Shown here piece after piece: positions 15,540 through 52,302 of a stretch of 53,097 nucleotides of DNA. Numbering within the stretch: position 1 is the first letter of the stretch; each line of letters opens with the position of its first letter. The stretch spans positions 1 through 53,097 of the forward strand of contig JACREJ010000017.1 of NCBI GenBank assembly GCA_016218305.1, in the 5' to 3' direction. The DNA is from Gemmatimonadota bacterium (GTDB lineage Bacteria; Gemmatimonadota; Gemmatimonadetes; Gemmatimonadales; Gemmatimonadaceae). The position numbers and the translations under genes are program-made. Below the pieces are notes generated by a model. That model was not told the origin of the DNA and did no database searches. It saw only the letters and a program-made list of their open reading frames with translations.

Positions 15540-15598
15540 CGATTGAGGATTGGGAGCTCGGATGGGGATTCGCGATTGGGATGTGCGATTCGGATGTC
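15540..15598 (-). repeat. Degenerate short tandem repeat between nurA and herA
   Basis: The gap holds imperfect copies of a GATTGGGA-like unit (plus strand), so the minus strand directly before herA is pyrimidine-rich with spaced CCCAATC words. It resembles in style the single repeat arms found elsewhere in this window, but the copies are diverged. No ribosome-binding site is visible for herA here. Confidence 0.5.
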
Positions 15599-15651
15599 GA
15601 TGTTCGCGCACTGCGCGGCCGGTCGTCCCAGCTCGGCTCTCATGCGGCGAC

Positions 15652-16596
15652 TCACCGCGTCACCGCCCGCAGGTACTCCTCCGTCAACCTAACGCCGTAC
15701 GCCATCGCTCCCCAGCGGGGATCGGGCAGCGAGACGGGCGACCGCTCCGCGAGCAGCCAGCGCGACACGAGGTCGGCGCGCTCCGCCGTCGCCCCCTCGA
15801 ACGCCACTTCAACCCGGACGAGCCCCCACAGCGCGTCGCGCGCCTCCGGCTCGCGGAGCCGCAGGTACCAGCTCGCCACCGGGGCGCGGCGCGGCGAGGT
15901 AACGGTGAACGCCGTGGTGCGCTCGCCGGCGGCCAGCCCCAAGACGACGGGGAGCGCGTCTCCGTCCACGTAGAGCGTGCGATGCGACTTCACCACCCCG
16001 ATGGCACGCGCGGAATGGGCGGCGGTGCCGGCGGCCGCAATGCCGCCATCCACAAAGAGGGGGCCGTCGCCCTCGGCGCACCACAACTCGGCGCACGCCG
16101 TCTCGACGGCCTCGCGTCGACGCTGCACGGCGCTCAACGCGCGGGCCGTCAGCTCCTGCGGGTGCCACGGTCCGCCCTCGTCGGCCGCCAGCGTGTCGCG
16201 CACCGGGCAGCCGGCTTCGAGCGCGCGCCACGCGGCATCGCCAATCGCGGCACGCGGCACGAACAGCGACCGCTCCAGGCGGACACCGTCGGGGCGCCAG
16301 GTCACGAGCGTGCGCTCCTGCCGTCGCCGCACCGCGGCGGCGACGGTGCCGTGCACGAGGGGGATGCCCCCCGCCCAGTGAGCGATTACGCGGCTTTCCT
16401 GGATGCCGTCGAGAAAGGCGGCGATGCCCACGGCCGGTTCACCCGGAACGCGGTGCACGCGCACGGCGTCCCCTTCGAGCGGCTCGGCGCGCTGCAATCG
16501 CGGCGGTTCCGGCGCCGCGGGGCGCAACTCGAGCAGCGGCTCCCCTGCGGACACGGCGGCGCCTGCGTGCCGCACGGCCCGGAGGGCGTCGCGCAC
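15652..16596 (-). CDS. nurA: NurA-like DNA repair nuclease
   Basis: A 314-residue protein assigned to the NurA 5'-3' nuclease family. Signs are the first acidic motif AFLDGIQ with D63, a second Asp motif FVDGG (D183) and the following IGVVKSHRTLY segment, which matches the NurA core pattern, plus location directly upstream of herA. The GTG at 16596 has a GGAGG ten bases upstream. An alternative ATG at 16635 would add 13 residues, has no ribosome-binding site and collides with the divergent lipoprotein start. NurA dimers dock on the HerA hexamer to degrade DNA ends. Family assignment is from motifs and context, slightly less certain than for its neighbours. Confidence 0.8.
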   Translation of the reverse strand: MRDALRAVRHAGAAVSAGEPLLELRPAAPEPPRLQRAEPLEGDAVRVHRVPGEPAVGIAAFLDGIQESRVIAHWAGGIPLVHGTVAAAVRRRQERTLVTWRPDGVRLERSLFVPRAAIGDAAWRALEAGCPVRDTLAADEGGPWHPQELTARALSAVQRRREAVETACAELWCAEGDGPLFVDGGIAAAGTAAHSARAIGVVKSHRTLYVDGDALPVVLGLAAGERTTAFTVTSPRRAPVASWYLRLREPEARDALWGLVRVEVAFEGATAERADLVSRWLLAERSPVSLPDPRWGAMAYGVRLTEEYLRAVTR

Positions 16597-16621
16597 GCTT
16601 GCGGCCCCTCCAGATGACGGG

Positions 16622-16627
16622 TACGTT
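16622..16627 (+). promoter_or_regulatory. TACGTT element 6 nt before lipoprotein start
   Basis: TACGTT is followed by exactly six bases and then the ATG at 16634. The spacing equals that seen before queD (1248) and the C26 gene (41384), suggesting a leaderless transcript starting inside the nurA 5' region. Confidence 0.35.
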
Positions 16628-16633
16628 GGCCCC

Positions 16634-17575
16634 ATGCGCCGTTCCGCACTCATGCTGAGCATCCTAGCCCTCGCGGCAGGATGCGACAAGCCGAAGCAGG
16701 CATCGGGCGACGACACACCGGTGCCGCCCTCCTTCGACGTTGCCACCAAGCCGCCGCTCGTTTTCCAGGCGTTCGGCACGCTGGACTCCACGCGCCTTGT
16801 GCCCGTCGCGGTCATCATCAACGGCAGCGTCAAGCCGATCGAGCTGCCGGGTGCCGACTGGCGTCGACTCGACTCTGCTTACTTCCAGCCGGGCACCGAG
16901 TACCCCGTGTACCGCGACGGACAGCCGGCGGGCACGGTGGTCGTGACGCGTCGGATGTGGGAGCCTGACAGCGAGCCGCTCTACGAGCTGCCGGGCTGTC
17001 GCGAAGCCCGCCCGATGGCAGCGGTGACGCTCAAGACGCGCGTGGCGCTTGACCCCGCCTTTGAGTTCCTCTCCCTCAGCGTCGCCGGCGGGAGTGCGCC
17101 GACGAAGTCGCAGGCCCCGCGTGAGCTCGACGCAGCCGTGCGCGCCGTCGCCGTGATGGCGCTGCGAACGGAGGGGCTCGATTCCGCCGACATCGACACG
17201 GCGTCGTTCAGCGCGCGCGCCATCAACATGGCCGGCGGCAGCCGGGCGACGCTCGTCGCGAACCAGGTGGATGCGAACGCGGGCGATACCGGACCCGGCG
17301 CCGGCCACACGACCCACTTCCTGGTGCTCGGCGACGACGCCGACGGCACGGGGTATAAGGTCACGTACCAGCACCTCGAGAGCGGCGAGGCCCGCCTGGT
17401 GGAGTTCCAGCGTCTCCTCGACCACCTGGACCTCACCGGCGACGGCACGGACGAGATCTTCGTGGAATCGTGGCGCTACGCCAGTACCAACGACCTGCTG
17501 GTGCTCACGCGCTCAAACGGCAAGTGGCGCGAGAGCCTGCGCGTGCCGCAGAAATGGTGCCTGAAACAGAGATAG
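16634..17575 (+). CDS. Putative lipoprotein of unknown function
   Basis: A 313-residue protein with a short lipoprotein signal peptide: MRRSALMLSILALAAGC, with lipobox LAAGC putting the lipidated Cys at 17. The mature part has no motif I recognise. Near the C-terminus, the phrase LDLTGDGTDEIFVESW resembles the calcium-binding D-x-T-G-D-G loops of FG-GAP/VCBS repeats, so this is perhaps a beta-propeller remnant or single repeat. It is divergent from nurA with its ATG overlapping the alternative nurA start. Its stop codon sits at the base of a 49-bp perfect inverted repeat. Function unknown. Confidence 0.8.
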   Translation: MRRSALMLSILALAAGCDKPKQASGDDTPVPPSFDVATKPPLVFQAFGTLDSTRLVPVAVIINGSVKPIELPGADWRRLDSAYFQPGTEYPVYRDGQPAGTVVVTRRMWEPDSEPLYELPGCREARPMAAVTLKTRVALDPAFEFLSLSVAGGSAPTKSQAPRELDAAVRAVAVMALRTEGLDSADIDTASFSARAINMAGGSRATLVANQVDANAGDTGPGAGHTTHFLVLGDDADGTGYKVTYQHLESGEARLVEFQRLLDHLDLTGDGTDEIFVESWRYASTNDLLVLTRSNGKWRESLRVPQKWCLKQR

Positions 17576-17687
17576 ACAACAGAGAGACAACAGAGAAACA
17601 ACAGAGAGACAACAGAGGGGCGAGCCGATCAGCTGGCGCGCCCCTCTGTTGTCTCTCTGTTGTTTCTCTGTTGTCTCTCTGTTGTCT
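17574..17687. repeat. Giant hairpin of 11-bp tandem repeats (family A, locus 1)
   Basis: Left arm 17574-17622 and right arm 17639-17687 are perfectly complementary over 49 bp, with a 16-base loop. Each arm is about four copies of an 11-bp unit, ACAACAGAGAG, including one variant unit (GAGAAAC) in the same place in both arms. It fills almost the whole gap between two convergent genes and begins in the stop codon of the first. It probably works as a bidirectional terminator or RNA 3'-end stabiliser. Confidence 0.9.
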
Positions 17688-17701
17688 CTCTCGTCCAGTG
17701 C

Positions 17702-17980
17702 CTACTCGACCCCGATGTTGAACGCCTGCTCCACGTCCGCTTTGGAGTAGGCCCTGAACGCAGTGAGCGTCGTGGTGCGCACGAGCCCCGGCACCTTCGG
17801 AAACTCCTCCGTCACGACGTGCGCAATCTCGTCGTATTGCGCCACCTTGATAATGCAGATGAGGTCCCATTCTCCCGACACGGAGTAGACGTCGGTGACC
17901 CCTGCAATGCCGGCGAGCGCCGCCGCGCATTTCGGGATGAGCGCGGGTTCGGCCCTGACGAGAACAATGGTCGTGATCAT
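17702..17980 (-). CDS. Stand-alone Lrp/AsnC ligand-binding (RAM) domain protein
   Basis: A 92-residue protein consisting only of the alpha/beta ligand-binding domain of Lrp/AsnC regulators: MITTIVLVRAEP, then GVTDVYSVSGEWDLICII and ending AFRAYSKADVEQAF. The helix-turn-helix half is absent. Such stand-alone domains bind amino acids and form octameric or larger rings; they may modulate full-length Lrp proteins or enzymes. It ends next to the long hairpin at 17574 and begins 71 bp after the stop of the minus-strand aminotransferase gene (18051), with which it may be co-transcribed. Confidence 0.88.
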   Translation of the reverse strand: MITTIVLVRAEPALIPKCAAALAGIAGVTDVYSVSGEWDLICIIKVAQYDEIAHVVTEEFPKVPGLVRTTTLTAFRAYSKADVEQAFNIGVE

Positions 17981-18050
17981 GAAGGCACCGATGCTGGGGT
18001 GGACGCACGGAACGCGGCGCAATCCAACATAGCGCGCGCGACCTCGCTGG

Positions 18051-19232: not shown

Positions 19233-19251
19233 GGTCGAACCGGGCTCCGAA

Positions 19252-19281
19252 TTGGAGGGCCGGGGGGAATTGCGCTAGATT
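19252..19281 (+). promoter_or_regulatory. Candidate promoter TTGGAG-18-TAGATT
   Basis: TTGGAG (19252-19257) and TAGATT (19276-19281) are spaced by 18 bp upstream of the helicase-like gene. The predicted start of transcription near 19288 gives a leader of about 55 bases with GAGG before the chosen GTG. Confidence 0.5.
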
Positions 19282-19342
19282 GTGTGTGCAACACGAAGTT
19301 AGCGTCACGCTGGCGCTGACGCCATTGACAATCGAGGTCGCA

Positions 19343-20884: not shown

Positions 20885-21486
20885 CGCAGCATTTCCAGCT
20901 GACCGGCGGCTGGGTGGAGGTCATCGCCGGTTCGATGTTCAGTGGCAAGAGTGAGGAGCTCATTCGCCGCGTCCGTCGCGCGATGATCGCGAAGAAGCGC
21001 GTGCAGGTGTTCAAGTCGCACCTGGACAACCGCTACACCGGCGTCTTCGCCGTGGGGTCGCACGATGGCCGCACGGTCGAAGCCGTCCCGGTGGACTCCG
21101 CGGCGCAGGTGGCGCAGCGGGTCGATCCCATCGCGCAGGTGATCGCGATTGACGAGGTGCAGTTCCTCGACGACGGCATCGTCGACGTGGCCACGGCACT
21201 CGCCGACCGCGGCGTGCGCGTGATTCTCGCCGGCATTGACACCGATTTTCGCGGCGAGCCGTTTGGCGCGATGCCCCGGCTGATGTGCCTCGCCGAAGTC
21301 GTGGACAAGCTGCACGCGATCTGCGTGATTTGCGGGATGCCTGCCAGCCGCAACCAGCGCCTCATTGACGGCCAGCCGGCGCGCTACGATTCCCCGCAGA
21401 TCATGGTCGGCGGCACCGAGAGTTATGAGGCGCGGTGCCGCTCCTGTCATACGGTGCTGAAGGGAGACCAGCCAAGTCTGCTCTAA
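20881..21486 (+). CDS. tdk: Thymidine kinase
   Basis: A 201-residue type II thymidine kinase that phosphorylates thymidine to dTMP in pyrimidine salvage. The P-loop is GSMFSGKS (residues 17-24), the catalytic Glu lies in AIDEVQFL, and the lasso domain has the zinc cysteines of CVICG and CRSC. The substrate loop includes the YEARCR segment. It overlaps the helicase-like gene by ATGA, so the two are translationally coupled. The stop codon is followed at once by a 7-bp-repeat hairpin shared with the convergent pilin gene. Confidence 0.96.
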
Positions 21487-21487
21487 A

Positions 21488-21590
21488 GGCAGATGGGAGA
21501 TGGGAGATGGGAGATGGGAGACGGGTGATGGCGTGTGCACGCTCTCCCCTCTCCCCTCTCCCATCTCCCATCTCCCATCTCCCATCTGCC
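21488..21590. repeat. Hairpin of 7-bp tandem repeats (family B, locus 1)
   Basis: Arms 21488-21521 and 21557-21590 are perfectly complementary over 34 bp and consist of four tandem copies of GATGGGA-type heptamers; complementarity continues inward with mismatches. The element starts two bases after the tdk stop and ends two bases from the stop of the convergent gene, so it is the entire intergenic region. A bidirectional terminator function is likely. Confidence 0.9.
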
Positions 21591-21591
21591 C

Positions 21592-25408: not shown

Positions 25409-25453
25409 CTATAAGGGAATGTGGCCAAGGCGACGGGGCCCACGCCAGCCCTT

Positions 25454-25483: not shown

Positions 25484-25526
25484 CATGGGCGTCGCCCTGA
25501 CGGCGGCCCGCACCCCCTGACTCCTT

Positions 25527-29035: not shown

Positions 29036-29437
29036 GTGTCTTCGATACCCGCTGATCTTCGCTACACCAACTCCCACGAATACCTCAAGCCGACTGCCGA
29101 TCCGTCCGTCGTCCAGGTCGGCATCACCGACTACGCCCAGGGTGAACTGGGCGACATCGTCTACCTCGAACTGCCGAAGCCGGGCGCCAAGTTCGGCGCG
29201 CATGACTCGTTTGGCACCATCGAGGCCGTGAAGGCCGTCTCCGACCTCTACTGCCCGGTCGCGGGCGAAGTGGTCGAGGTCAATTCCCGCCTCGACGCCG
29301 AGCCCTCGCTCGTCAACAGCGATCCGTACGGTGACGGCTGGATGCTGAAACTACGAGTGGCGCCAGCCGACGTCGCAGCACTCATGAACGCCGAAGCGTA
29401 CGCGAAGCACCTCGAGTCTGGTGGCGGCGGACACTAG
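29036..29437 (+). CDS. gcvH: Glycine cleavage system H protein
   Basis: A 133-residue lipoyl carrier protein of the glycine cleavage complex. The lipoylated lysine is K66 in GTIEAVKAVSD; the flanking LGDIVYLELP and DGWMLKL segments are typical. The GTG at 29036 follows GGAG by six bases; a TTG at 29015 would add seven residues but lacks a good ribosome-binding site. It is convergent with gcvP and shares with it an 11-bp-repeat hairpin. H protein can also act as the octanoyl relay for lipoylation of other enzymes, which fits the LipM-like gene at 32843. Confidence 0.96.
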   Translation: MSSIPADLRYTNSHEYLKPTADPSVVQVGITDYAQGELGDIVYLELPKPGAKFGAHDSFGTIEAVKAVSDLYCPVAGEVVEVNSRLDAEPSLVNSDPYGDGWMLKLRVAPADVAALMNAEAYAKHLESGGGGH

Positions 29438-29442: not shown

Positions 29443-29577
29443 GCAGAGAAACAACAGAGAAGCAACAGAGAGACAACAGAGAGACAACAGAGGTCCGGGG
29501 CGTAAGCTCCGGACCTCTGTCTATGGTCTGTCTGTTGTTTCTCTGTTGTCTCTCTGTTGTCTCTCTGTTGTTTCTCT
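29443..29577. repeat. Hairpin of 11-bp tandem repeats (family A, locus 2)
   Basis: The same ACAACAGAGAG-type units as at 17574, on both arms between convergent gcvH and gcvP. The inner stem (29487-29498 with 29509-29520, 12 bp perfect, 10-base loop) is a conventional terminator; outward the arms continue as repeats, with one extra irregular unit in the right arm near 29521-29534. Both arms start within about ten bases of the stop codons. Confidence 0.88.
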
Positions 29578-38787: not shown

Positions 38788-38832
38788 ATCTGCCATCTAC
38801 CATCCACCATCTACCATCTGCCGTCTACCATC
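38788..38832 (-). repeat. Single arm of 7-bp tandem repeats (family C, locus 1)
   Basis: Six tandem heptamers of the type CTACCAT on the plus strand (GATGGTA on the minus strand), ending about eight bases from the stop of the minus-strand POT gene. Read from the POT gene the arm is purine-rich, as for most other arms. No complementary second arm is present. Confidence 0.8.
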
Positions 38833-38839: not shown

Positions 38840-40351
38840 CTACTTCACCCCATGCATCAGCTTCTGCACCCTCGGCGCCGCGAGCAGCAGGATGAGACCC
38901 GCCGCCGTCAGCGCCCAGAAGCCGAAGGTGTAGCCGCTCAACGCCGACGTCGTCGTCATGCCGGTCTCGCCGCTCACCTCGCTGGCGAAGATGCCCGACA
39001 GGTTGTTGCCGATGCCCGTGGAGAGGAACCAGCCGCCCATCCCGAGCCCGACCAGCTTCACCGGCGCGAGCTTCGTCACCATGGAGAGCCCGATCGGCGA
39101 CAGGCAGAGCTCGCCGATGGACTGGATCAGGTAGACCGCCACCAGCGTCCAGAACGGGATCTTGTTGTCGGCCGGATTGATGAGGCTCGACAGCGCGAAC
39201 ATGAGCAGCAGGAACGCCAGGCCGTTGAAGATCAGGCCGAGCCCGAACTTCCGCGGGATGGACGGGTTCGCGTTCACCTTGGCCAGTGCCACCCACACCC
39301 AGGCCACGATCGGGGCGAAGATGATGATCGCCACCGCGTTCACGCTCTGGAACCAGCCCGTCGGGAAGGTCCAGTCGCCGAACTGCCGGTTCACGATGTT
39401 GTCGGCCAGGAAGGTGAAGGAACTGCCGGCCTGCTCGAAGAACATCCAGAACATGATGTTGAACACGAAGATCAGCAGCATCGCGATCGTCTTGTCGCGC
39501 GCCACGGCCCCTTCGCGAATGCCCTCGACCATCAGCATCGCCGAGAGGCCGATGAACATCGCCGTGAGCACGTACTGCAGGTTCTTGCCGCCCACCGCGA
39601 GCAGCGAGAACACGAGCGGCACGCAGAGCGCGGCGCCGATGGCCACGTAGATCACGCGCATCCGGTTCGCCTGGTCGGCCACCGGCGCGCCGATGCCCTG
39701 CAGCTGGCGGCGGCCGACGTAGAACCAGACGAGGCTGATCAGCATGCCGATGCCGGCCGTCATGAAGACGACCTTGTATGCCGGCATGGACTCGGTGCCA
39801 AACACGTTCTCGGCCAGCCAGCTCGTGAGGAGCGGCGACAGGAACGCGCCCGCATTGATGCCCATGTAGAAGATCGTGAAGCCCGAATCGCGGCGTTCGT
39901 CACCCGCCGAGTAGCACTTGCCGACGATGGTCGAGATGTTCGGCTTGAACAACCCGTTGCCGACGACGATCGTCGAGAGGCCGAGCTTGAAGATCGTCGG
40001 GTCGGGCAGCGTGATCATGAACAGGCCCGCCGCCATGAAGACGGCACCCGTCAGGATGGACCGCTGGTAACCGATCACCTTGTCGGCCACATAGCCGCCG
40101 AAGATCGCCACGGCGTAGACGAGCGCGAGGTAGGACCCGTACGTCAGGTTCGCCTCGGCCTGTCCGGTGGGCGAGCCGCCGTGGAACTGGGCGACGATGT
40201 AGAGCACCAGCGCCCAGCGAATGCCGTAGAACGCGAAGCGCTCCCAGAACTCCGACATGAACAGCATCCACAGCGGCTGCGGATGCCCCATCATCTGCTT
40301 GAACTCGGGAATCGTCGTGCCGTCCCGGTTCGTATCAGCTGCACCACTCAT
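38840..40351 (-). CDS. POT-family proton-dependent peptide transporter
   Basis: A 503-residue major-facilitator protein of the PTR2/POT family that imports di- and tripeptides with protons. The helix-1 motif EFWERFAFYGIRWALVLY (ExxERFxYY-type) carries the proton-coupling residues. The GGYVADKVIGYQRSI loop and the NPGNLF-type segment (GLFKPNISTIVGKCY) follow; about 12-14 hydrophobic segments are visible. GGAG lies seven bases before the ATG. An 18-bp palindrome about 55 bp upstream may be its operator. It converges on the peptide ABC transporter, giving two peptide uptake routes side by side. Confidence 0.93.
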   Translation of the reverse strand: MSGAADTNRDGTTIPEFKQMMGHPQPLWMLFMSEFWERFAFYGIRWALVLYIVAQFHGGSPTGQAEANLTYGSYLALVYAVAIFGGYVADKVIGYQRSILTGAVFMAAGLFMITLPDPTIFKLGLSTIVVGNGLFKPNISTIVGKCYSAGDERRDSGFTIFYMGINAGAFLSPLLTSWLAENVFGTESMPAYKVVFMTAGIGMLISLVWFYVGRRQLQGIGAPVADQANRMRVIYVAIGAALCVPLVFSLLAVGGKNLQYVLTAMFIGLSAMLMVEGIREGAVARDKTIAMLLIFVFNIMFWMFFEQAGSSFTFLADNIVNRQFGDWTFPTGWFQSVNAVAIIIFAPIVAWVWVALAKVNANPSIPRKFGLGLIFNGLAFLLLMFALSSLINPADNKIPFWTLVAVYLIQSIGELCLSPIGLSMVTKLAPVKLVGLGMGGWFLSTGIGNNLSGIFASEVSGETGMTTTSALSGYTFGFWALTAAGLILLLAAPRVQKLMHGVK

Positions 40352-41107: not shown

Positions 41108-41250
41108 GGGCAGGCGGGCTGCGGTTTGTGGATTTCGCGCGCGACCGACGTTCCGGCGCGCGCCCCATGCACAATACGATACTGCAACGCGGCGGTTCCG
41201 CCCAACCCGCCGCGGTATGCGTCCGCCCCCGTCCGCATTCCCTGCACCCC

Positions 41251-41366
41251 ACCCTGCCCCCTGAACCCTGCACCACACCCTGCTCCCTGAACCCTGCACC
41301 CCATCCTGCCCCCTGAACCCTGCACCACACCCTGCTCCCTGAACCCTGCACCACACCCTGCACCCT
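41251..41366. repeat. 26-bp tandem repeat, four copies (family D)
   Basis: Four consecutive 26-bp units (41251, 41277, 41303, 41329), each built from ACCCTGC, CCCTGAACCC and TGCACC words and differing at only two or three positions, plus a partial fifth. The tract lies between divergent starts of the coiled-coil gene and the C26 gene and ends five bases before the TAGTTT element of the latter. A degenerate relative (ACCCTGCCCC, ACCCTGCGCC) occurs near 32600-32645 before the small membrane protein. Confidence 0.88.
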
Positions 41367-41377: not shown

Positions 41378-41383
41378 CAGTGT

Positions 41384-42121: not shown

Positions 42122-42158
42122 GCGAGCCGCCGCTCCTCCTCCTCCCCATATTTAGGGC

Positions 42159-43229: not shown

Positions 43230-43293
43230 ACGCGTACCCCGCCGCGCCGGTAGTTTTATAGGTTCCACCCTCTCATCGGCCCCTCACGACCCC

Positions 43294-44867: not shown

Positions 44868-45817
44868 GCACGCCCCGCGAAGCCGACCTGTCGAAGGTGC
44901 GCACGATTCCCGTCGCCGGGCGGCCCAACAAGGTGAACGCCGGCGAGTTCGCCACGCCGCCGCACGACGACCGCTCGTTCGCCGCCTTCGTCCGCTCGCT
45001 CCCGGACGTGCTCAAGGCGGCCGATTTCCGCCGCGTCGTGGACGCCGTCGTGCAGGCGCACCGCGCCAAGCGCGCGGTCATCGTGATGCTCGGCGGGCAC
45101 GTCGTGAAGACCGGCATCGGTCCGCTCCTCGTGGACCTCATGCGCCGCGGCGTTGTCACCGATCTCGCCATGAACGGGTCGGCGGCCATCCACGACTACG
45201 AGATCGCCCGCTTCGGCGCGACGAGCGAGGACGTGGCCGCGGGACTGCGCGACGGCACGTTCGGAATGGCTGAAGAGACCGGCCGCGGGCTCAACGAGGC
45301 GTTCGTGAAGGGCATGGCCGAGGGCTGGGGCATGGGCGAAAGCGTGGCGCGCGCCCTCGAGGGCGAGGCGTCCCTCGCGCATCCCGAACTCAGCGTGATC
45401 CTGCAGGCGCGCACGCTGGGCGTGGGCACCACGGTGCACGCCGCGCTCGGCGCCGAGATCATCCACCAGCATCCGGCGGCCAATGGCGCGGCCATCGGCG
45501 ACACGAGCCATCGCGACTTCCGCCGCCTCGCGGCGAGCATCGAACGGCTGCACGACGGCGGTGTCGTCCTCAACTGCGGCAGTGCGGTGATCATGCCGGA
45601 GGTCTTCCTCAAGGCGCTGACCATCGCCCGCAACCTCAACGCCGGCCGGCCGACGGGCTTCGTCACCTGCGACATCGACATGCAGCGGCACTACCGGCCG
45701 CACGTGAACGTCGTGCAGCGCCCTACCCTCGCCGGCGGTGCCGGCTACGAACTCACCGGGCATCATGAGCTGATGCTGCCGATGTTGGCGTGGGCGATTG
45801 CGGATGCGATGGGCTGA
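44864..45817 (+). CDS. Deoxyhypusine-synthase-like protein
   Basis: A 317-residue protein whose core (MLGGHVVKTGIGPLLVDLMR, NGSAAIHDYEIA, GATSEDVAAGLRDGTFGMAEETG, then TVHAALGAEIIHQHP) belongs to the bacterial branch related to deoxyhypusine synthase, with an NAD-type Rossmann core. The lysine that forms the enzyme intermediate in eukaryotic deoxyhypusine synthase should lie in the C-terminal third. I see no matching motif there (the end reads GGAGYELTGHHELMLPML), so the classical reaction is doubtful. Bacteria also lack the eIF5A substrate. Function unknown. It overlaps the DUF3108 gene by GTGA. Confidence 0.72.
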   Translation: MSTPREADLSKVRTIPVAGRPNKVNAGEFATPPHDDRSFAAFVRSLPDVLKAADFRRVVDAVVQAHRAKRAVIVMLGGHVVKTGIGPLLVDLMRRGVVTDLAMNGSAAIHDYEIARFGATSEDVAAGLRDGTFGMAEETGRGLNEAFVKGMAEGWGMGESVARALEGEASLAHPELSVILQARTLGVGTTVHAALGAEIIHQHPAANGAAIGDTSHRDFRRLAASIERLHDGGVVLNCGSAVIMPEVFLKALTIARNLNAGRPTGFVTCDIDMQRHYRPHVNVVQRPTLAGGAGYELTGHHELMLPMLAWAIADAMG

Positions 45818-45821
45818 ACAA

Positions 45822-45917
45822 GGGCAGATGGTCGATGGTAGAGGGTAGGCGACGGGGCGCGATCCGCATGGATCGCGCCCCGTCATCTCTACCGTCAACC
45901 CTCGACCACCTACCATC
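45822..45917. repeat. Composite hairpin with 7-bp repeat arms (family C, locus 2)
   Basis: A perfect 15-bp stem (45851-45865 with 45870-45884, GCAT loop) is flanked by imperfect arms of GATGGTA-type heptamers on both sides. It lies between the convergent deoxyhypusine-synthase-like gene and the small membrane protein gene. The core is a classic strong hairpin; the outer arms extend the potential pairing. Confidence 0.85.
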
Positions 45918-45943
45918 ACGCGCACCGCGAGCCGGAGCCCGCG

Positions 45944-46159
45944 CTACGAATTGAACTTCTCCTCGATCTTCCGGGCCGTGTCCGGCATGAACAGCCGCAG
46001 GATCAGGTAGATGATGCCGCCCACGATGGCGATGCGCACCGCCCATCCGAGCAGGACGAAGAAGATCCCGAACAGGACGCCGAAGAGGCCGAAGAAGACC
46101 TTGAGGGCGAAGAGGCCGATCAGGGCCAGGGCGCCAATTCCAAAGATGGTGCGGAGCAT
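45944..46159 (-). CDS. Small membrane protein
   Basis: A 71-residue protein that is nearly all hydrophobic: MLRTIFGIGALALIGLFALK, then repeated Phe/Gly/Leu segments (VFFGLFGVLFGIFFVLLGW), and IAIVGGIIYLIL. It has two or three membrane helices and a charged tail (PDTARKIEEKFNS). No family name is certain. It is divergent from lipA, with about 280 bp between, so the lipA operator region could also affect it. The ATG at 46159 was chosen over upstream frame extension because the hydrophobic segment starts right there. Confidence 0.7.
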   Translation of the reverse strand: MLRTIFGIGALALIGLFALKVFFGLFGVLFGIFFVLLGWAVRIAIVGGIIYLILRLFMPDTARKIEEKFNS

Positions 46160-46326
46160 GGGAAACCTCGGTGCGGGTGCTGTCTCCCATACGCGCCAGC
46201 CCCTGCGGAGGTTTCGGCGCCCGCCTGCTCCTCCAGCGCGTCGCCTGATGCCCTCGGACGCAGCGGGTCGATCACCCGACCGTGGTCCGCCGAGCGTGAT
46301 CATGCGCCGAGAACCGCAGAAGGGTG

Positions 46327-46356
46327 GTAACCGTTATTTATAGTTATAACGGTTAC
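46327..46356. promoter_or_regulatory. Double palindromic operator upstream of lipA-pdh operon
   Basis: An 11-bp perfect inverted repeat (GTAACCGTTAT at 46327-46337, ATAACGGTTAC at 46346-46356) with an 8-bp spacer, in the most AT-rich patch of the window. Each half also contains its own odd palindrome, TAAC-C-GTTA (46328-46336) and TAAC-G-GTTA (46347-46355), whose starts are 19 bp apart, about two helical turns. A TACTAT hexamer (46355-46360) overlaps the second site, so a bound protein would probably repress. Regulator unknown. Confidence 0.65.
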
Positions 46357-46385
46357 TATTGCTGGATTCCGCTTGGTCCGCGCGG

Positions 46386-46391
46386 TAGTTT
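46386..46391 (+). promoter_or_regulatory. TAGTTT -10-like element upstream of lipA
   Basis: TAGTTT about 52 bases before the lipA ATG, downstream of the double operator. It belongs to the recurrent TAGNTT class; an alternative -10 (TACTAT) overlaps the operator itself. Confidence 0.35.
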
Positions 46392-46443
46392 CTTCATTCC
46401 GCCCCCGATTGCCGGGTGGCGGACTCCCTCGCCCCATTCACGC

Positions 46444-47352: not shown

Positions 47353-47366
47353 TCCCCATTCATCCC

Positions 47367-48398
47367 ATGGCAACCAAGAAGAAGACCGCCGCCAAGGGCG
47401 CACCGGGTACGGTGCGCACCGCTGGCGATCCGGCGCTCGACCGGGAAATGTTGCACTCGATGCTCCTGCAGCGCCGCTTCGAGGAGAAGACGGGCGAGGC
47501 GTACGCGCTCGGCAAGATCGGCGGGTTCTGCCATCTCTACATCGGCCAGGAAGCGGTCTCCACGGGCATCATCGGACAGCTTCGCGCGGATGACTACGTG
47601 ATCGGCACGTACCGCGACCACGGGCAGGCGCTGGCGCGCGGCATCACGCCGCGGGCCGTGATGGCCGAGCTCTTTGGCCGCATCGACGGCTGCTCGCGCG
47701 GCAAGGGCGGGTCGATGCACCTCTTCGACCGCAACGTGAACTTCCTCGGCGGACACGGCATCGTCGGCTCGCACGTGCCGCTCGCGGCCGGGGTCGGCTT
47801 CGCCATCAAGTACCGCGGCGGCGACCAGGTCTGCGTCTGCTTCATGGGTGATTCGGTGGTCAACATCGGCGCCTTCCATGAGGCGCTCAACATGGCGGCG
47901 CTCTGGAAGCTCCCTGTGCTCTTCGTCATCGAGAACAACCGCTACGGCATGGGCACCGCCGTCGAGCGCGCCGCAGCCGTGGACGACCTGTCCAAGCGCG
48001 CCGACGGCTACACCGGCATGGACGGCATCGTCGTGGACGGCATGGACGTGCACGCCGTCCGTGACGCCGCCGGCAAGGCGATCGAGCGTGCCCGCACCGA
48101 GTCGCGGCCGTCGCTGCTCGAGGTGCGCACGTACCGGTTCCGCGGCCACTCGATGTCCGACGCGGTGAGCGGCACGTACCGCAGCAAGGATGAGCTCGAC
48201 GAGTATCAGGCGTACGACCCGGTCTTCTCGCTGCGCGACGCGATGGTGCTCGCCAGCACGATGACCGTGGCCGAGTGGGAGGCGATGGAAAGGGACGTGG
48301 CAGCGATCGTGCAGGATGCGTGGGATTTTGCCGATGCGAGCCCGGAGCCGCCGCCGGGGGCGTTGTTTGAAGACGTATTGGTGGACACGACGAGCTGA
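47367..48398 (+). CDS. pdhA: Pyruvate dehydrogenase E1 component, alpha subunit
   Basis: A 343-residue thiamine-diphosphate subunit of the heterotetrameric (alpha2beta2) E1. GKGGSMHLFD, the TPP motif running from GDSVVN to IENN and the loop YRFRGHSMSD are characteristic. The TPP motif has GDS where most enzymes have GDG. A Lys/Ala-rich N-terminal tail (MATKKKTAAKG) may bind E2. It decarboxylates pyruvate (or a branched-chain 2-oxoacid; the sequence does not fully decide) and lies 14 bases after lipA and two before pdhB. Confidence 0.94.
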   Translation: MATKKKTAAKGAPGTVRTAGDPALDREMLHSMLLQRRFEEKTGEAYALGKIGGFCHLYIGQEAVSTGIIGQLRADDYVIGTYRDHGQALARGITPRAVMAELFGRIDGCSRGKGGSMHLFDRNVNFLGGHGIVGSHVPLAAGVGFAIKYRGGDQVCVCFMGDSVVNIGAFHEALNMAALWKLPVLFVIENNRYGMGTAVERAAAVDDLSKRADGYTGMDGIVVDGMDVHAVRDAAGKAIERARTESRPSLLEVRTYRFRGHSMSDAVSGTYRSKDELDEYQAYDPVFSLRDAMVLASTMTVAEWEAMERDVAAIVQDAWDFADASPEPPPGALFEDVLVDTTS

Positions 48399-48400
48399 CC

Positions 48401-49381
48401 ATGCCAATCATCACCTACCGCGAAGCCCTCAACCAAGCCCTCCGCGAGGAGATGTCCCGCGACGACCGTGTCTACCTCATGGGCGAGGAAGTCGGCGTCT
48501 ACAACGGGGCGTACAAGGTCTCGAAGGGCCTCCTCGAGGAGTTCGGCGAGAACCGCGTCGTGGACAGCCCCATCGCCGAGCTGGGCTTCGCCGGCATCGG
48601 CGTGGGTTCGGCGATGGCGGGCCTGCGTCCGGTCATCGAGTTCATGACGTGGAACTTCGCCCTGCTCGCCATCGACCAGGTGGTGAACTCCGCGGCGAAG
48701 ATGCTCTACATGTCGGGCGGCCAGTACAACGTGCCGATCGTCTTCCGCGGCCCCAACGGCGCCGCGCTGCAGCTGGGCGCGCAGCACTCGCAGGCCTTCG
48801 AGAGCTGGCTGGCGCACATCCCCGGCATCAAGGTCTGCTCGCCGGGCACGCCGTACGACGCCAAGGGACTGCTCAAGAGCGCCATCCGCGACGACAACCC
48901 GGTGGTGTTCCTTGAGGGCGAGATGCTCTACAACACCAAGGGCGAGGTCCCCGAGGGCGAGTATCTCATTCCGCTGGGCAAGGCCGACCTCAAGCGCGAA
49001 GGGAGCGACTGCACGATCGTCACGAGCGGCAAGATGGTGCTGGTGGCGATGCAGGTGGCCGACCAGCTGGCGAAGGAGGGCATCCACCTCGACGTGCTGG
49101 ACCTCCTGACCATTCGCCCGATGGACGTCGAGGCCATCTACGCCTCGGTGCGCAAGACGCAGCGCGCGGTGGTGCTCGAGGAAGGGTGGGAGATCTGCGG
49201 CATCGGGGCGCAGGTCGTGGACTTCATCCAGCGCGAGTGCTTCGACCACCTCGACGCGCCCGTGCTCCGCGTGCACCAGGCCGACGTGCCCATGCCGTAC
49301 GCCAAGGGGCTCGAGAAGATCGCCAAACCAGACGCGGCGAAGACGATCGCCGCGGTGAAGCAGGTGATGTACCGAGCGTAG
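48401..49381 (+). CDS. pdhB: Pyruvate dehydrogenase E1 component, beta subunit
   Basis: A 326-residue E1 beta subunit. Typical segments: REALNQALREEM, VDSPIAELGFAGIGVGSAM, PIVFRGPNG, GIKVCSPGTPYDAKGLL and the C-terminal DLLTIRPMDVEAI and EEGWEICG. It forms the active site with PdhA. Two bases separate it from pdhA. Downstream a 7-bp-repeat arm fills part of the 56-base gap before pdhC, the first loose junction of the operon. Confidence 0.95.
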   Translation: MPIITYREALNQALREEMSRDDRVYLMGEEVGVYNGAYKVSKGLLEEFGENRVVDSPIAELGFAGIGVGSAMAGLRPVIEFMTWNFALLAIDQVVNSAAKMLYMSGGQYNVPIVFRGPNGAALQLGAQHSQAFESWLAHIPGIKVCSPGTPYDAKGLLKSAIRDDNPVVFLEGEMLYNTKGEVPEGEYLIPLGKADLKREGSDCTIVTSGKMVLVAMQVADQLAKEGIHLDVLDLLTIRPMDVEAIYASVRKTQRAVVLEEGWEICGIGAQVVDFIQRECFDHLDAPVLRVHQADVPMPYAKGLEKIAKPDAAKTIAAVKQVMYRA

Positions 49382-49384
49382 ACG

Positions 49385-49416
49385 CTCTACCGTCTACCGT
49401 CCACCATCTACCGTCA
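49385..49416 (+). repeat. Single arm of 7-bp tandem repeats (family C, locus 3) between pdhB and pdhC
   Basis: Four CTACCGT/CCACCAT-type heptamers directly after the pdhB stop. The plus strand here is pyrimidine-rich, the reverse of the usual orientation after a gene. No complementary arm is present before pdhC. Confidence 0.75.
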
Positions 49417-49437
49417 CTTTCGGTCGACACGAGTCCT

Positions 49438-50691
49438 ATGGCAACAAAGATCTTCATGGAGGCCCTCTCTCCCACGATGGAAGAAGGCCGCCTCGTCAAG
49501 TGGAACGTTCCGGAGGGCGCCGCCGTGAAGTCGGGCGACGTGCTCGCGGAGGTGGAGACCGACAAGGCCGTCATGGAGCTGGTCGCCCGCGGCGACGGCG
49601 TGCTGCGCAAGCAGCTCGTGGCCGAAGGGACGACGGCGCCGGTGGGCTCGCTCGTCGGCGTGATCGCGGCGGCCGACGAGGACATCGCGGCGTTGGTCAG
49701 CGGTGCGGGTAGCGCCACGCCGGCCGCGGCCGTCCCTACAGCGGCGGCCGCCGCGGCGGCTCCGGTGACGCCTCCCGCGCCGGCAGCGGCCGCGCCTGTG
49801 GCGCCACCCGCACCCGCCGCTCCAGTGAGCACGGGCCCCACGAGGAGTTCACCACTCGCGCGCCGGCTCGCCCGCGAGAGCGGCCTCGACGTTGGCACGA
49901 TTGCCGGCTCTGGCCCCAGCGGCCGCGTCATCAAGCGTGACATCGAGGCGGCCATCGCCGGCGGTGGCGTCACTGGCGTCAGCCGTCCGCCCTCTGCCGT
50001 CGCGGGCGCCGACTTCACGGACCAGCCGTTGACGCAAATCCGCAAGACCATCGCCAAGCGTCTCGCGGAGTCCATCGGCCCCATCCCGACGTTCTACCTC
50101 ACCGCGGAGTACGACATGACGCGCGCCGTCGAGATGCGCGCGCAGGCGGCTGGACTGGGCGACGAGTTCAAGGTGTCGGTCAACGACATCGTGCTGAAGG
50201 CGGTGGCCACGGCGCTCGCCGCGCACCCCGAGGTGAACGCGCACTGGCTCGGCGACAAGATCCGCTACTTCAGTCGCGTCCACCTCGGCATGGCCGTCGC
50301 CACCGACGACGGGCTCATCGTGCCGGTGATCTTCGACGCCGACCAGAAGGGGCTCCGCGAGATTTCGAGCGAGTCGCGCGCGCTGGCGGCGAAGGCGCGC
50401 GAGCGCAAGCTCACGCCCGAGCAGTACACCGGCTCCACCTTCTCGGTGTCGAACCTCGGCATGATGCAGATCGACCAGTTCACGGCGATCATCAATCCGC
50501 CGGAGTGCGGCATTCTCGCCATCGGCGCGATTGAGGACACGCCCGTCGTAGTGGATGGAGCAATCGCCGTCCGCAAGCGCATGCGCGTCACGATGAGCTG
50601 CGATCACCGCGTCATCGACGGCGCGGTGGGTGCGCGATTCCTGCTCGACCTGCGGCGCATGCTCGAGAATCCACTGATGCTGGTGTTCTAG
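49438..50691 (+). CDS. pdhC: Dihydrolipoamide acetyltransferase (E2) of pyruvate dehydrogenase
   Basis: A 417-residue E2 core protein. One lipoyl domain (residues about 1-77, lipoyl lysine K43 in VETDKAVME), an Ala/Pro linker (about 90-125), a peripheral-subunit-binding domain (SPLARRLARESGLDV through GPSGRVIKRDI, about 128-165) and the catalytic domain (about 185-417) with active-site SCDHRVIDGA. The ATG at 49438 puts the lipoyl domain at the N-terminus as expected. No clear ribosome-binding site precedes it. LipA, encoded first in the operon, would complete its lipoylation. Confidence 0.96.
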   Translation: MATKIFMEALSPTMEEGRLVKWNVPEGAAVKSGDVLAEVETDKAVMELVARGDGVLRKQLVAEGTTAPVGSLVGVIAAADEDIAALVSGAGSATPAAAVPTAAAAAAAPVTPPAPAAAAPVAPPAPAAPVSTGPTRSSPLARRLARESGLDVGTIAGSGPSGRVIKRDIEAAIAGGGVTGVSRPPSAVAGADFTDQPLTQIRKTIAKRLAESIGPIPTFYLTAEYDMTRAVEMRAQAAGLGDEFKVSVNDIVLKAVATALAAHPEVNAHWLGDKIRYFSRVHLGMAVATDDGLIVPVIFDADQKGLREISSESRALAAKARERKLTPEQYTGSTFSVSNLGMMQIDQFTAIINPPECGILAIGAIEDTPVVVDGAIAVRKRMRVTMSCDHRVIDGAVGARFLLDLRRMLENPLMLVF

Positions 50692-50804
50692 AGATGGGAG
50701 GTGGGAGATCGGAGATGGGAGATGAACGAGCTATCGCCCTCACTCCGGCCTTCCGACACGACTTCCCGCCCTCCATCTCCCATCTCCAATCTCCCATCTC
50801 CCAT
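50692..50804 (+). repeat. Hairpin of 7-bp tandem repeats (family B, locus 2) between pdhC and lpd
   Basis: GATGGGA-type heptamers follow the pdhC stop immediately (50692-50724) and are complementary to 50774-50804, with one G-U pair and one mismatch. The loop is about 50 bases. Unlike locus 1 it lies between two genes in the same direction, with the lpd ATG 12 bases after the right arm, so it may attenuate or process the operon mRNA. Confidence 0.85.
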
Positions 50805-50815
50805 CGGTCTCTCCC

Positions 50816-52219
50816 ATGGCCAACTTTGATGTGATCTTCCTCGGCGGCGGCCCCGCGGGCTACGTCGGCGCCATTCGCGCCTCGCAGCTCGGCCTGACTG
50901 TCGGCGTCATCGAGCGTGAAGGACTCGGCGGCACCTGCGTGCTCTGGGGGTGCATCCCTGCCAAGGCGCTGCTCGAGTCCTCGCACCTGGCCAACCGGCT
51001 CAAGCATGCCGCCGATTTTGGCGTGAAGGTGGGCGACATCACGCTCGACTACGGCGTCGCGATGAAGCGCTCGCGCGACGTGTCGGTCAAGAACTCCAAG
51101 GGCGTCGAGTTCCTGTTCAAGAAGAACAAGGTCACCTGGATCAAGGGGACGGGCGTCCTCGGGGCCGGAAAGACCGTGAAGGTCACGACCGCCGACGGCA
51201 AGGTCGAGACGCACACCGCCACGAAGGCGCTCGTCATCGGCACCGGGTCGCGCGTGAAGGGATTGCCGCAGGCCGGCCTCGAGCTGAACAGGACGACGAT
51301 CATCTCGTCGGATGACGCGCTGGTGCTCGAGAAGGCCCCCAAGACGCTCGCCGTCGTCGGCGCGGGCGCCGTCGGCTGCGAGTTCGCCGATGTCTTCAGC
51401 GCCTTTGGCACCAAGGTGACCGTCATCGAGGTGATGCCCCGCATCCTGCCGCTCGAGGATGAGGACAGCTCGGCCGAGGTGGCGCGGTCATTCAAGAAAC
51501 GTGGCATCGACGTCCTCGCCGGCGCCAAGCTCTCCGGCGCCAAGGTCGGCAAGGACAGCGTGACCCTCACCGTGGAGGCCGGCGGCCAGAAGCAGGAGCT
51601 GGTCGTGGAGAAGGTGCTTGTCGCCGCCGGGCGCGCCGCGAACATCGAGAACATCGGGCTCAAGGAAGTCGGCGTGCAGCTCACCGACCGCGGATTCATC
51701 AAGGTGAACGACCGGCTCGAGACGACGGCCAAGGGGATCTACGCCATCGGCGACGTCGCCGGCCCGCCGATGCTCGCGCACAAGGGCGAGCGCGAGGGGG
51801 TCATCGTGGCCGAGATCATCGCCGGGCACCACCACCACCCGATCAACTACGGCAACATCCCCAACTGCACCTACTGCCACCCCGAGGTGGCGTCCATCGG
51901 CCTGACCGAGGCGCAGTGCAAGGAGAAGAAGCTCGAGTACAAGGTGGGCAAGTTCCCGTTCAGCGCGAATGGCCGCGCCCGCACCGCGGGCGAGACCGAG
52001 GGCTTCGTGAAGATCATCCGCGACGCCAAGTACGGCGAGATCCTCGGCGCGCACCTCGTGGGCCCGCACGTGACGGAGATGATCCACGAGCTGCTCGTGG
52101 CACGCGAGAACGAATTCACCGTGGAGGAGATCGACCTCGCCATCCACGCGCACCCCACGCTGAGCGAGGCGGTGGCTGAAGCGGTGCTGGATTCGATGGG
52201 CAAGATGATACACGCCTGA
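50816..52219 (+). CDS. lpd: Dihydrolipoamide dehydrogenase (E3)
   Basis: A 467-residue flavoprotein disulfide reductase that reoxidizes dihydrolipoyl groups with NAD+. The FAD-binding LGGGPAGYVGA, redox-active C41/C46 in GGTCVLWGCIP, NAD-binding VVGAGAVGCEFA, the YAIGDVAG segment and the C-terminal HPTLSEA (catalytic His/Glu) are all present. As E3 it could serve the pyruvate complex and the glycine cleavage system. It lacks a visible Shine-Dalgarno; the bases before the ATG are the right arm of the repeat hairpin and a short CT-rich run. Confidence 0.96.
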   Translation: MANFDVIFLGGGPAGYVGAIRASQLGLTVGVIEREGLGGTCVLWGCIPAKALLESSHLANRLKHAADFGVKVGDITLDYGVAMKRSRDVSVKNSKGVEFLFKKNKVTWIKGTGVLGAGKTVKVTTADGKVETHTATKALVIGTGSRVKGLPQAGLELNRTTIISSDDALVLEKAPKTLAVVGAGAVGCEFADVFSAFGTKVTVIEVMPRILPLEDEDSSAEVARSFKKRGIDVLAGAKLSGAKVGKDSVTLTVEAGGQKQELVVEKVLVAAGRAANIENIGLKEVGVQLTDRGFIKVNDRLETTAKGIYAIGDVAGPPMLAHKGEREGVIVAEIIAGHHHHPINYGNIPNCTYCHPEVASIGLTEAQCKEKKLEYKVGKFPFSANGRARTAGETEGFVKIIRDAKYGEILGAHLVGPHVTEMIHELLVARENEFTVEEIDLAIHAHPTLSEAVAEAVLDSMGKMIHA

Positions 52220-52220
52220 G

Positions 52221-52302
52221 AAGCAGAGAAACAACAGAGAGACAACAGAGAGACAACAGACAAACAACAGAGGGGTGCCGGCATCTTGCCGCGCACCCCT
52301 CT
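52221..52302 (+). repeat. 11-bp repeat arm plus terminator after lpd (family A, locus 3)
   Basis: About four ACAACAGAGAG-type units start two bases after the lpd stop and lead into a 10-bp perfect stem (52269-52278 with 52293-52302). There is no second repeat arm, and the next gene points the same way. A degenerate CT-rich stretch (about 52325-52365) might be a decayed partner. It likely terminates the lipA-pdh-lpd operon. Confidence 0.82.

What the first reader, a model, noticed from the sequence alone, without database searches (positions are those of the whole stretch)
15540..52302. A dispersed family of gene-end short tandem repeats that build giant hairpins
At least seven gene junctions carry tandem units directly after a stop codon: an 11-bp unit (17574, 29443, 52221), a GATGGGA heptamer (21488, 50692) and a GATGGTA heptamer (38788, 45822). 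A CTACCGT run (49385), a 26-bp tract (41251) and a diverged tract (15540) lie before genes instead. Arms that follow a gene read purine-rich away from that gene; the exception is 49385. Between convergent genes two such arms meet as long inverted repeats. Different unit sequences with the same architecture suggest a shared formation process or function (bidirectional termination, 3'-end protection, supercoil absorption) rather than one mobile element. I do not recognise this as a described element class.
Basis: seen in the sequence. Interest (0 to 1): 0.8.

Follow-up and report, generated by a model that had tools for sequence, protein, structure and literature searches.

The report
Seven-base repeat hairpins at gene boundaries
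These bacteria carry short repeats, mostly seven bases long and often paired as hairpins, pressed against the ends and starts of genes; such repeats are known elsewhere, but here related species often carry different versions at the same spot, which suggests that the repeats are copied around within each genome.

Summary
The window (a Gemmatimonadota draft genome) holds tandem 7-mer and 11-mer arrays in gene spacers, often as inverted arms of 32-58 nt. The list mixes two classes. (1) Heptamers, GAYGGNN in this genus, abut stops and starts; they show no convergent-gene excess in samples taken without regard to repeats, and lie inside the pdh operon, so general termination is unlikely. (2) 10/11-mers (CAGAGARACAA-like) favour convergent ends and a GC hairpin (28 of 43): probably repeat-extended terminators. 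In both, two-arm sites always read purine then pyrimidine (37 of 37). The class is described: Rehm 2015 reports heptamer repeats in Xanthomonas and Nostoc with the same position rule. New here: one junction carries different heptamers in sister species; units follow the genome, not the site (identity 0.64 within genomes, 0.41 between orthologous sites, 0.40 background); a core is constrained while three positions drift; palindromes fill spacers that are nearly empty in some relatives; two other genera sampled use other heptamers. Best reading: dispersed, concertedly evolving intergenic elements that work like REP elements; no RAYT transposase or reverse transcriptase was found in the draft. 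Function and movement are inferred.

The parts
15548..15601 (+). Diverged purine-rich tract (13-mer, GATTGGG/GATTCGG-like), 8 bp upstream of the called start of the - gene 13593-15539 (a longer ORF frame runs to 15611); weak member
   Evidence: TRF (77-88% matches); gene calls
17570..17617 (+). 11-mer array (AGAGAGACAAC), left purine arm; overlaps the last codons and stop of the + gene ending 17575
   Evidence: TRF; inverted arm; context
17644..17691 (-). 11-mer array, right (pyrimidine) arm, 10 bp from the stop of the - gene 17702-17980; a GC hairpin lies between the arms
   Evidence: TRF; arms 97% complementary; fold z -16.2; 11-mer or 10-mer at this junction in 6 of 8 other genus genomes tabulated
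21488..21531 (+). GATGGGA array, left arm, directly after the thymidine kinase stop (21486)
   Evidence: TRF; tdk
21543..21590 (-). GATGGGA array, right arm, abutting the stop of the - gene ending 21592
   Evidence: TRF; fold z -11.0; spacer 0 bp in G009 and 6 bp in G005
29444..29492 (+). 11-mer array (CAGAGAAACAA), left arm after the + ORF ending 29437
   Evidence: TRF
29526..29577 (-). 11-mer array, right arm, overlapping the stop of gcvP (29576-32434, -)
   Evidence: TRF; gcvP; fold z -14.9; 11-mer or 10-mer in 4 of 5 other genus genomes tabulated
38788..38832 (-). GATGGTA array between the stop of the peptide:H+ symporter gene (38840-40351, -) and a GC hairpin
   Evidence: TRF; orthologous sites
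41240..41366 (-). 26-bp tract built of CCCTGCA-like heptamers in a divergent spacer, 17 bp before the + gene 41384
   Evidence: TRF (period 26, 91%; period 7, 66%)
45822..45917 (.). Degenerate GATGGTA arms on both sides of a GC hairpin after the + gene ending 45817
   Evidence: sequence; not in the TRF list
49386..49415 (-). Pyrimidine arm (CTACCGT) 4 bp after the pdh E1-beta stop and 22 bp before the E2 start: read as a start-side arm
   Evidence: TRF; relatives
50691..50724 (+). GATGGGA array, left arm, touching the stop of pdh E2 (49438-50691)
   Evidence: TRF; E2
50773..50805 (-). GATGGGA array, right arm, 10 bp before the start of lpd (50816-52219)
   Evidence: TRF; fold z -6.7; other heptamers in relatives
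52224..52272 (+). 11-mer array after the lpd stop, running into a GC hairpin (about 52270-52301); no matching right arm
   Evidence: TRF; same arrangement in L019 and L054

Best explanation
These are dispersed intergenic repeat elements of a known general kind (heptameric intergenic repeats), in two classes. Class 1, heptamer arrays: one or two polar arms of a seven-base unit (GAYGGNN in this genus) at the edges of gene spacers, the purine/G-rich strand facing inward. Shown: arrays occupy spacers that are almost empty in some relatives, and their units resemble other arrays of the same genome, not the orthologous array of sister species. Inferred: the elements are copied or converted from site to site within a genome; copies survive mainly in spacers; something recognises the constrained GAYGG core; once transcribed, two-arm elements form stable hairpins that act, as REP elements do, on mRNA 3' ends and on the balance between neighbouring genes rather than as strong terminators. 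Class 2, 10/11-mer arrays (CAGAGARACAA-like): they often lengthen the stem of a GC hairpin, with an excess between convergent genes. Inferred: they serve as bidirectional terminators.
For: Position: 120 of 143 strand-asymmetric arrays (both classes) in 11 genus genomes lie nearer the gene on the outer side; where that gene end is a stop (93) the median distance is 3 bp (arms and orthologs not independent). Order: 37 of 37 two-arm junctions read purine then pyrimidine, namely 20 heptamer, 16 10/11-mer, 1 mixed. In stretches chosen by contig number 21 of 21 same-family two-arm junctions keep one polarity and 70 of 83 assigned heptamer arrays lie on the predicted side, family strands defined post hoc. 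Edges: in spacers of 150 bp or more, 12 of 20 arrays lie within 25 bp of a gene against 3.9 expected (G016), 4 of 6 against 0.8 (G015). Gain: pdhA-pdhB spacer 0-4 bp in 8 genomes tabulated, 79 bp with a GACGGTG palindrome in G010; tdk spacer 0 and 6 bp in two genomes, 81-162 bp with palindromes of three unit types in four. Concerted units: identity at variable positions 0.639 within genome, 0.405 orthologous, 0.398 background; 0 of 401 permutations. Core: 93 of 97 heptamer arrays match GAYGG (51 of 52 outside G000), shuffled units mean 9.8, max 17; within arrays positions 1,2,4,5 deviate in 2.9-4.5%, positions 3,6,7 in 10-15%. Class 2: GC hairpin just inside 28 of 43 10/11-mer arrays, 23 of 85 heptamer arrays, 139 of 942 stop codons; convergent excess. 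Heptamers at three junctions of the pdh operon.
Against: No machinery found: no Y1/RAYT or reverse-transcriptase match in G000 (draft, 91.7% complete). The unit class (7 against 10/11) is conserved at two junctions across species, which looks like vertical descent. 13 of 83 heptamer arrays lie on the wrong side for their polarity. No transcript data. The consensus terminator scan flags none of the array sites. Core constraint could partly be mutational bias. The concerted-unit test rests on 30 arrays, G010 well represented. Genomes are mostly drafts and gene calls come from a home-made finder.
Confidence: 0.58

Rival explanations
1. Neutral slippage: heptamers arise locally by polymerase slippage (a seven-base step favoured by the enzyme), are removed by selection inside genes and promoters, and palindromes come from template switching. 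No dispersal, no function.
For: Period 7 with unrelated units in other genera; the slippage idea for heptamers is in print (Rehm discussion); arrays lie where spacer room is.
Against: Units follow the genome, not the site; uneven constraint within the unit; fixed order of arms; enriched outer-end trinucleotides GCA/AGT (G000 15 of 39, G010 10 of 20, other genus genomes 7 of 26).
Confidence: 0.2
2. All arrays are bidirectional transcription terminators.
For: Stable hairpins; 10/11-mers sit on GC hairpins and favour convergent ends; heptamers are convergent-rich in the selected own loci and the pooled set; Rehm reports that transcripts start or stop more often in G4-capable repeats of Xanthomonas (section read).
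Against: No convergent excess of heptamers in the four samples taken by contig number; heptamers between pdh E1a/E1b (G010), E1b/E2 and E2/E3; many junctions have one arm only (64 of 101); at the symporter junction a separate GC hairpin is seen with or without arrays; consensus scan flags none.
Confidence: 0.16
3. G-quadruplex elements: four G-tracts per array regulate by G4 formation, as proposed for Xanthomonas and Nostoc.
For: GATGGGA and GGGAATC arrays have GGG every 7 bases; Rehm showed G4 folding of their repeat oligonucleotides in vitro (abstract).
Against: The commonest units of several sister species (GACGGTG in G010, GATGGCG in G008, G007 and G001) and of G016 (GGCTRTT, GTGACTA, GCTGCGT) have no GGG.
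Confidence: 0.07
4. REP/BIME elements mobilised by a RAYT (Y1) transposase.
For: Dispersed palindromes at gene ends; many REPs carry a GTAG tag (abstract), and GTAG recurs inside GAYGGTA arrays.
Against: PF01797 not found in G000 and found in 2 of 11 genus genomes, while 11 of 11 carry arrays; tandem heptamer arms are not the REP fold.
Confidence: 0.04
5. Recognition-sequence arrays (like DNA uptake sequences): a genus-specific binder of GAYGG drives accumulation through biased uptake or recombination, giving species dialects.
For: Constrained core with species dialects; uptake-sequence dialects exist in Neisseriaceae (seen in a search listing only).
Against: Tandem arrays rather than many single sites; seven-base period; no binder identified; competence genes not searched.
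Confidence: 0.1

Closest known systems
G-rich heptameric repeats GGGAATC (Xanthomonas) and GGGGA(C/T)T (Nostoc), Rehm et al. 2015, PMC4692102
   Same: Seven-base tandem units, mainly intergenic, preferentially within 50 bp after a stop on the coding strand or before a start on the non-coding strand, under-represented between divergent genes; 70 (Xcc) and 75 (Xac) inverted pairs in convergent orientation; [quoted passage not shown]
   Different: Here units differ between sister species at the same junction and follow the genome; units without G-triplets; palindromes where some relatives have almost no spacer; a second 10/11-mer class on GC hairpins
TAACTGA repeats of Beggiatoaceae, Cyanobacteria, Bacteroidetes (MacGregor 2015, PMC4679880)
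   Same: Heptamer direct repeats, intergenic, close to coding regions, patchy across phyla (abstract and one section)
   Different: Mostly just upstream of starts, one inverted repeat against 169 direct sets in the main genome; twofold unit found once in 1 of 175 genomes of this family
REP/BIME elements (GTAG/CGTC families, Di Nocera 2013, PMC3733652)
   Same: Dispersed palindromes mostly between codirectional or convergent genes, some families species-specific (abstract, passages)
   Different: REPs are 20-40 bp palindromes with a tag, GTAG types linked to RAYTs; here arms are tandem heptamers and no Y1 transposase was found in G000
STRR repeats of heterocystous cyanobacteria (recalled; Calothrix heptanucleotides are cited in Rehm's introduction)
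   Same: Tandem heptanucleotides
   Different: Polarity and palindromic pairing not compared here

Membership tests
Intergenic heptameric repeats (Rehm 2015) | Tandem unit of exactly 7 bases | tested here: met
   Met by class 1: G016 27 of 176 spacers at period 7, 0 at 4-6 and 8-13. Not met by the 10/11-mers of the window's genus, which are therefore not filed here
Intergenic heptameric repeats (Rehm 2015) | G-rich strand is sense after a stop and antisense before a start, close to the gene | tested here: met
   Heptamers 74 of 90 nearer on the outer side (10/11-mers 46 of 53), median 3 bp to stop for both together
Intergenic heptameric repeats (Rehm 2015) | Inverted pairs in convergent orientation | tested here: met
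   20 of 20 heptamer two-arm junctions in 11 genus genomes
Intergenic heptameric repeats (Rehm 2015) | G4-forming G-triplet in each unit | tested here: not met
   Present in GATGGGA, absent from GACGGTG, GATGGCG, GGCTRTT, GTGACTA; so filed under heptameric repeats in general, not under G4 repeats
REP/BIME with RAYT | Tagged palindrome of 20-40 bp | tested here: not met
   Arms are tandem 7-mers or 11-mers
REP/BIME with RAYT | Cognate Y1 transposase | tested here: not met
   No PF01797 match in G000, matches in 2 of 11 genus genomes (drafts)
Intrinsic terminators (10/11-mer class) | GC hairpin at gene end | tested here: met
   28 of 43 arrays against 139 of 942 stops
Intrinsic terminators (10/11-mer class) | U-rich tail after the hairpin | tested here: inconclusive
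   The consensus scan flags none, though at 17.6 kb the pyrimidine arm after the core reads CTGTTGTCTCT
Intrinsic terminators (10/11-mer class) | Transcripts end there | not testable with these tools
   needs Term-seq

The most novel reading that the evidence does not exclude
A trans-acting system, not yet known, recognises a five-base core repeated every seven bases (GAYGG in this genus, other units in the two other genera sampled), spreads polar arrays and palindromes into gene spacers and keeps the arrays of one genome in one dialect; the seven-base step is set by that system, and the scattered reports of bacterial heptamer repeats (Xanthomonas, Nostoc, Beggiatoaceae) are dialects of the same class.
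Probability: 0.22. Interest if true: 0.82.

Novelty: new variant of a known kind. Interest (0 to 1): 0.52.

Why it matters
Heptamer repeats in bacteria have been reported piecemeal, without an established function or spreading mechanism. This lineage gives a natural experiment: eleven related genomes, the same gene junctions, different units, and nearly empty sites. It separates slippage, dispersal and selection by comparison, shows that G-quadruplexes are not the common denominator, and gives a testable prediction (a binder of the GAYGG core, or a copying process that homogenises distant arrays). If the concerted evolution holds in closed genomes, it is a dispersed repeat class moving without a recognised transposase.

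Tried and rejected
RAYT/Y1 transposase as mover: disfavoured for the window's genome (draft, 91.7% complete). Telomerase-like or other reverse transcriptase as maker: no PF00078 match in G000, G010, G003, G008, G001, G005, G016 and G015; matches in 5 of 18 genomes searched (G006, G012, G140, G023, G024), of which at least the first three carry arrays. Known RNA family: none in the window at gathering thresholds. G4 as common denominator: rejected. CsrA (GGA) or Chi-like motif: considered from memory only, not tested. Source of the 24-bp non-repeat tail of the G010 pdhA-pdhB insert: other G010 stretches held show only 10-12-base matches to parts of it. Arm-by-arm compensatory change: only 3 two-arm comparisons (identity 0.844), too few. 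Control pattern is not clean: reversed GAYGGNN matches GATGGTA and GATGGCA arrays; the reversed 11-mer likewise resembles the array itself. The counter of single arms also counted two-arm sites and is not used; one search recounts. One search used a mistyped 11-mer pattern (0 hits) and is ignored. The purine rule itself fails in G016, whose units are mostly not purine-rich (arm orders there include 5 NR and 1 YR); only the polarity of each unit family holds there. Literature searches: no paper on such repeats in Gemmatimonadota in the listings; most subscription journals are not covered. Passages only were seen of PMC4060949 and PMC12699852; the latter concludes that bacteria show no average excess of short tandem repeats and its text has no word starting with 'hepta' or 'Gemmatimon'.

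Rows dropped before counts: 203 arrays became 143 after leaving out 42 genic, 6 without both neighbours and 12 without strand asymmetry; of 98 intergenic heptamer arrays one was dropped for its unit length (97 left, 95 listed by unit). One search fetched 20 GATGGGA clusters of those printed (first 100 of 120 places); left out were the two in the window, four near contig starts (C1, C6, C26, C39) and one on C105. L122 (G004 contig 4) and L143 (G015 contig 2) come from contigs known to hold hits; L143 is not in the samples. G016, G015 and G010 were chosen for larger samples because a first sample showed arrays; their stretches were taken by contig number.
Full report
WHAT IS THERE. The window is contig C72 of a 2.0-Mb draft genome. 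The best lpd relatives are Gemmatimonadota MAGs. The arms reach 58 nt at 97% complementarity. RNA folding is far beyond shuffles where two arms meet (z -6.7 to -16.2) but not at the single-arm site 38712 (z -1.8). Genes nearby: thymidine kinase and dihydrolipoyl dehydrogenase, gcvP, a peptide:H+ symporter and pyruvate dehydrogenase E1a, E1b and E2.

ENRICHMENT AND PERIOD. In 81 sequences (80 lpd loci plus the window, 881 kb) TRF rows of period 7 are 78 intergenic to 18 genic, with 16.5% of the bases intergenic. In stretches taken by contig number the period is strict: G016 (another genus of the family, 405 kb) 27 of 176 spacers at period 7 and none at 4-6 or 8-13; G015 (151 kb) 11 of 55 at period 7 and none at 4-6 or 8-13; G010 (own genus, 240 kb) 10 of 120 at period 7, 3 at 10, 3 at 11, 2 at 9, 1 at 13; own genome 3 at period 7, 4 at 11, 1 at 10 of 80. 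Multiples (14) also score. Shuffle means were 0.2 or less.

POSITION AND POLARITY. Among 143 strand-asymmetric arrays of 11 genus genomes, 120 lie nearer to the gene on the outer (5' of the purine strand) side (p = 5e-17, inflated by paired arms and orthologs); 93 of these follow a stop, median distance 3 bp, and 27 precede a start. Of 101 junctions, 37 have both arms and all read purine then pyrimidine (20 heptamer, 16 10/11-mer, 1 mixed); 33 have only a purine and 31 only a pyrimidine arm. In the samples taken by contig number, each heptamer family keeps one polarity: 21 of 21 same-family two-arm junctions, and 70 of 83 assigned arrays on the predicted side of the spacer (39 of 45 in G016, 11 of 14 in G010, 16 of 19 in G015, 4 of 5 in the own genome; family strands defined from the same data). 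The strand richer in G than C faces inward (G016 p = 6e-6; G015 p = 0.04; G010 p = 0.03; own genome p = 0.4). One rule therefore covers stops and starts: a spacer holds a palindrome or half of one, pushed to its edges. In spacers of 150 bp or more, arrays are at the edges more often than uniform placement gives: G016 12 of 20 (3.9 expected), G015 4 of 6 (0.8), selected own-genome loci 10 of 23 (4.8), G010 7 of 13 (4.0, p = 0.07), own-genome sample 5 of 7 (2.4, p = 0.06).

TWO CLASSES. By junction, heptamers are not enriched between convergent genes in the samples taken by contig number (G016 1/34, G010 1/12, G015 3/14, own genome 1/5; backgrounds 28/234, 27/148, 12/73, 12/101). In own loci selected for GATGGGA they are (7/23 against 12/82, p = 0.03), and in the pooled genus set 23 of 64 heptamer-only junctions are convergent against 110 of 599, a set that counts the window's convergent sites and their orthologs. 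The 10/11-mers are enriched in the own-genome sample (4/7, p = 0.003), nearly so in G010 (4/9, p = 0.06), not significantly in the selected own loci (2/6) or the window (2/3). A GC hairpin begins within 18 bp inside 28 of 43 10/11-mer arrays, 23 of 85 heptamer arrays and 139 of 942 stop codons. The 11-mer pattern is confined to this genus among 179 family genomes: 9 have it, all among the 11 of the genus. The consensus terminator scan flags none of the array sites, so termination stays an inference.

ORTHOLOGOUS JUNCTIONS. After the symporter gene, 6 of 10 genomes tabulated pass the array score at period 7, between the stop and a GC hairpin, with units GATGGTA (window, G006, G004), GATGGCG (G001), GACGGTA (G003) or GACGGTG-like (G010); G008 and G009, and G002, show short or degenerate runs by eye, G005 a trace, G007 none. 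The tdk spacer is 0 bp in G009, 6 bp in G005, 21 bp in G007 and 13 bp by eye in G002; it is 81-162 bp with palindromes in the window (GATGGGA), G008 and G001 (GATGGCG type) and G010 (GACGGTG); G006, G004 and G003 have array-free spacers of other make. Between pdhA and pdhB the spacer is 0-4 bp in 8 genomes tabulated (7 bp by eye in G009) and 79 bp with a palindrome in G010. The 17.6-kb and 29.4-kb junctions keep 11- or 10-mers in 6 of 8 and 4 of 5 other genomes, so the class of repeat can be inherited with the site. No divergent junction of that table passes the score in any genome, although the window's own 26-bp tract lies in one.

DIALECTS. 93 of 97 heptamer arrays of the genus match GAYGG against a shuffle mean of 9.8 and maximum of 17; outside G000, where loci were not picked by unit except one G004 contig, 51 of 52. 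All 11 genus genomes hold the fourfold pattern, 36 to 421 matches each, as do 49 of 175 family genomes in 16 of 35 genera (its reversed control is not clean). At positions 3, 6 and 7 arrays of one genome agree at different junctions (0.639, 42 pairs) far more than orthologous arrays of different genomes do (0.405, 73 pairs; background 0.398, 317 pairs); 0 of 401 permutations reach this (30 arrays). Some dialects are shared (GATGGCG in G008, G007 and G001). Inside arrays, deviations from the majority unit fall on positions 3, 6, 7 (93/898 in G000, 52/340 in G010, 80/619 elsewhere in the genus) and rarely on 1, 2, 4, 5 (36/1227, 21/471, 26/853) (summed by me). This speaks for recognition of the core, although mutational bias is not excluded. 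The bases just outside the arrays are also not random (GCA or AGT in 15 of 39 in G000, 10 of 20 in G010, 7 of 26 elsewhere), as if the elements had ends.

OTHER GENERA. G016 uses GGCTRTT, GTGACTA and GCTGCGT; G015 CAGGCAT, GGGAATC, GTGAATC, GAGAGTT, GAGGTCG and CAGAGTG. GGGAATC, the Xanthomonas unit, is amplified in three genera here (G012 112+96, G140 41+61, G015 41+26) and found at all in 12 of 177 genomes; TAACTGA twofold occurs in 1 of 175.

COMPARISON. Rehm et al. [quoted passage not shown] passages). The element kind is therefore known. What is added here is unit replacement at fixed junctions, genome-wide dialects, a constrained core, nearly empty sites, independence from G-triplets, and the 10/11-mer class on GC hairpins.

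VERDICT. A real, ordered feature of a known kind in a new lineage with a new evolutionary signature. Movement within genomes is the best reading of the dialect data; how it moves and what it does are open.

Noticed in passing
G012, G140, G015: The exact Xanthomonas heptamer GGGAATC is amplified in three other genera of the same family; convergence or transfer is undecided.
   Followed up: partly
G016 sample, L144 and L274-L293: Spacer arrays at period 7 only (and multiples), including the nearly self-complementary unit GTGACTA (tandem copies contain ACTAGT), often next to start codons.
   Followed up: partly
G000 contigs C1, C6, C26, C39, C17: GATGGGA arrays lie within a few hundred bases of contig ends, as if the repeats break the assembly; long arrays are probably under-counted.
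   Followed up: no
window 47367-52219: The pdh operon junctions carry arrays in many genus genomes although they lie inside an operon; effect on E1:E2:E3 balance is untested.
   Followed up: partly
L259 (G007), spacer matching window 45817-46443: In place of a heptamer arm G007 has a 14-mer repeat CCGTGGCCGATCAA after the terminator-like hairpin.
   Followed up: no
window 41240-41366: 26-bp tract made of CCCTGCA/CCCTGAA-like heptamers in a divergent spacer, a class that otherwise has few arrays; L034 has a CCCTGAC-like array before lpd.
   Followed up: no
window 29036-29437: The + gene called before the 29.4-kb array was not identified.
   Followed up: no
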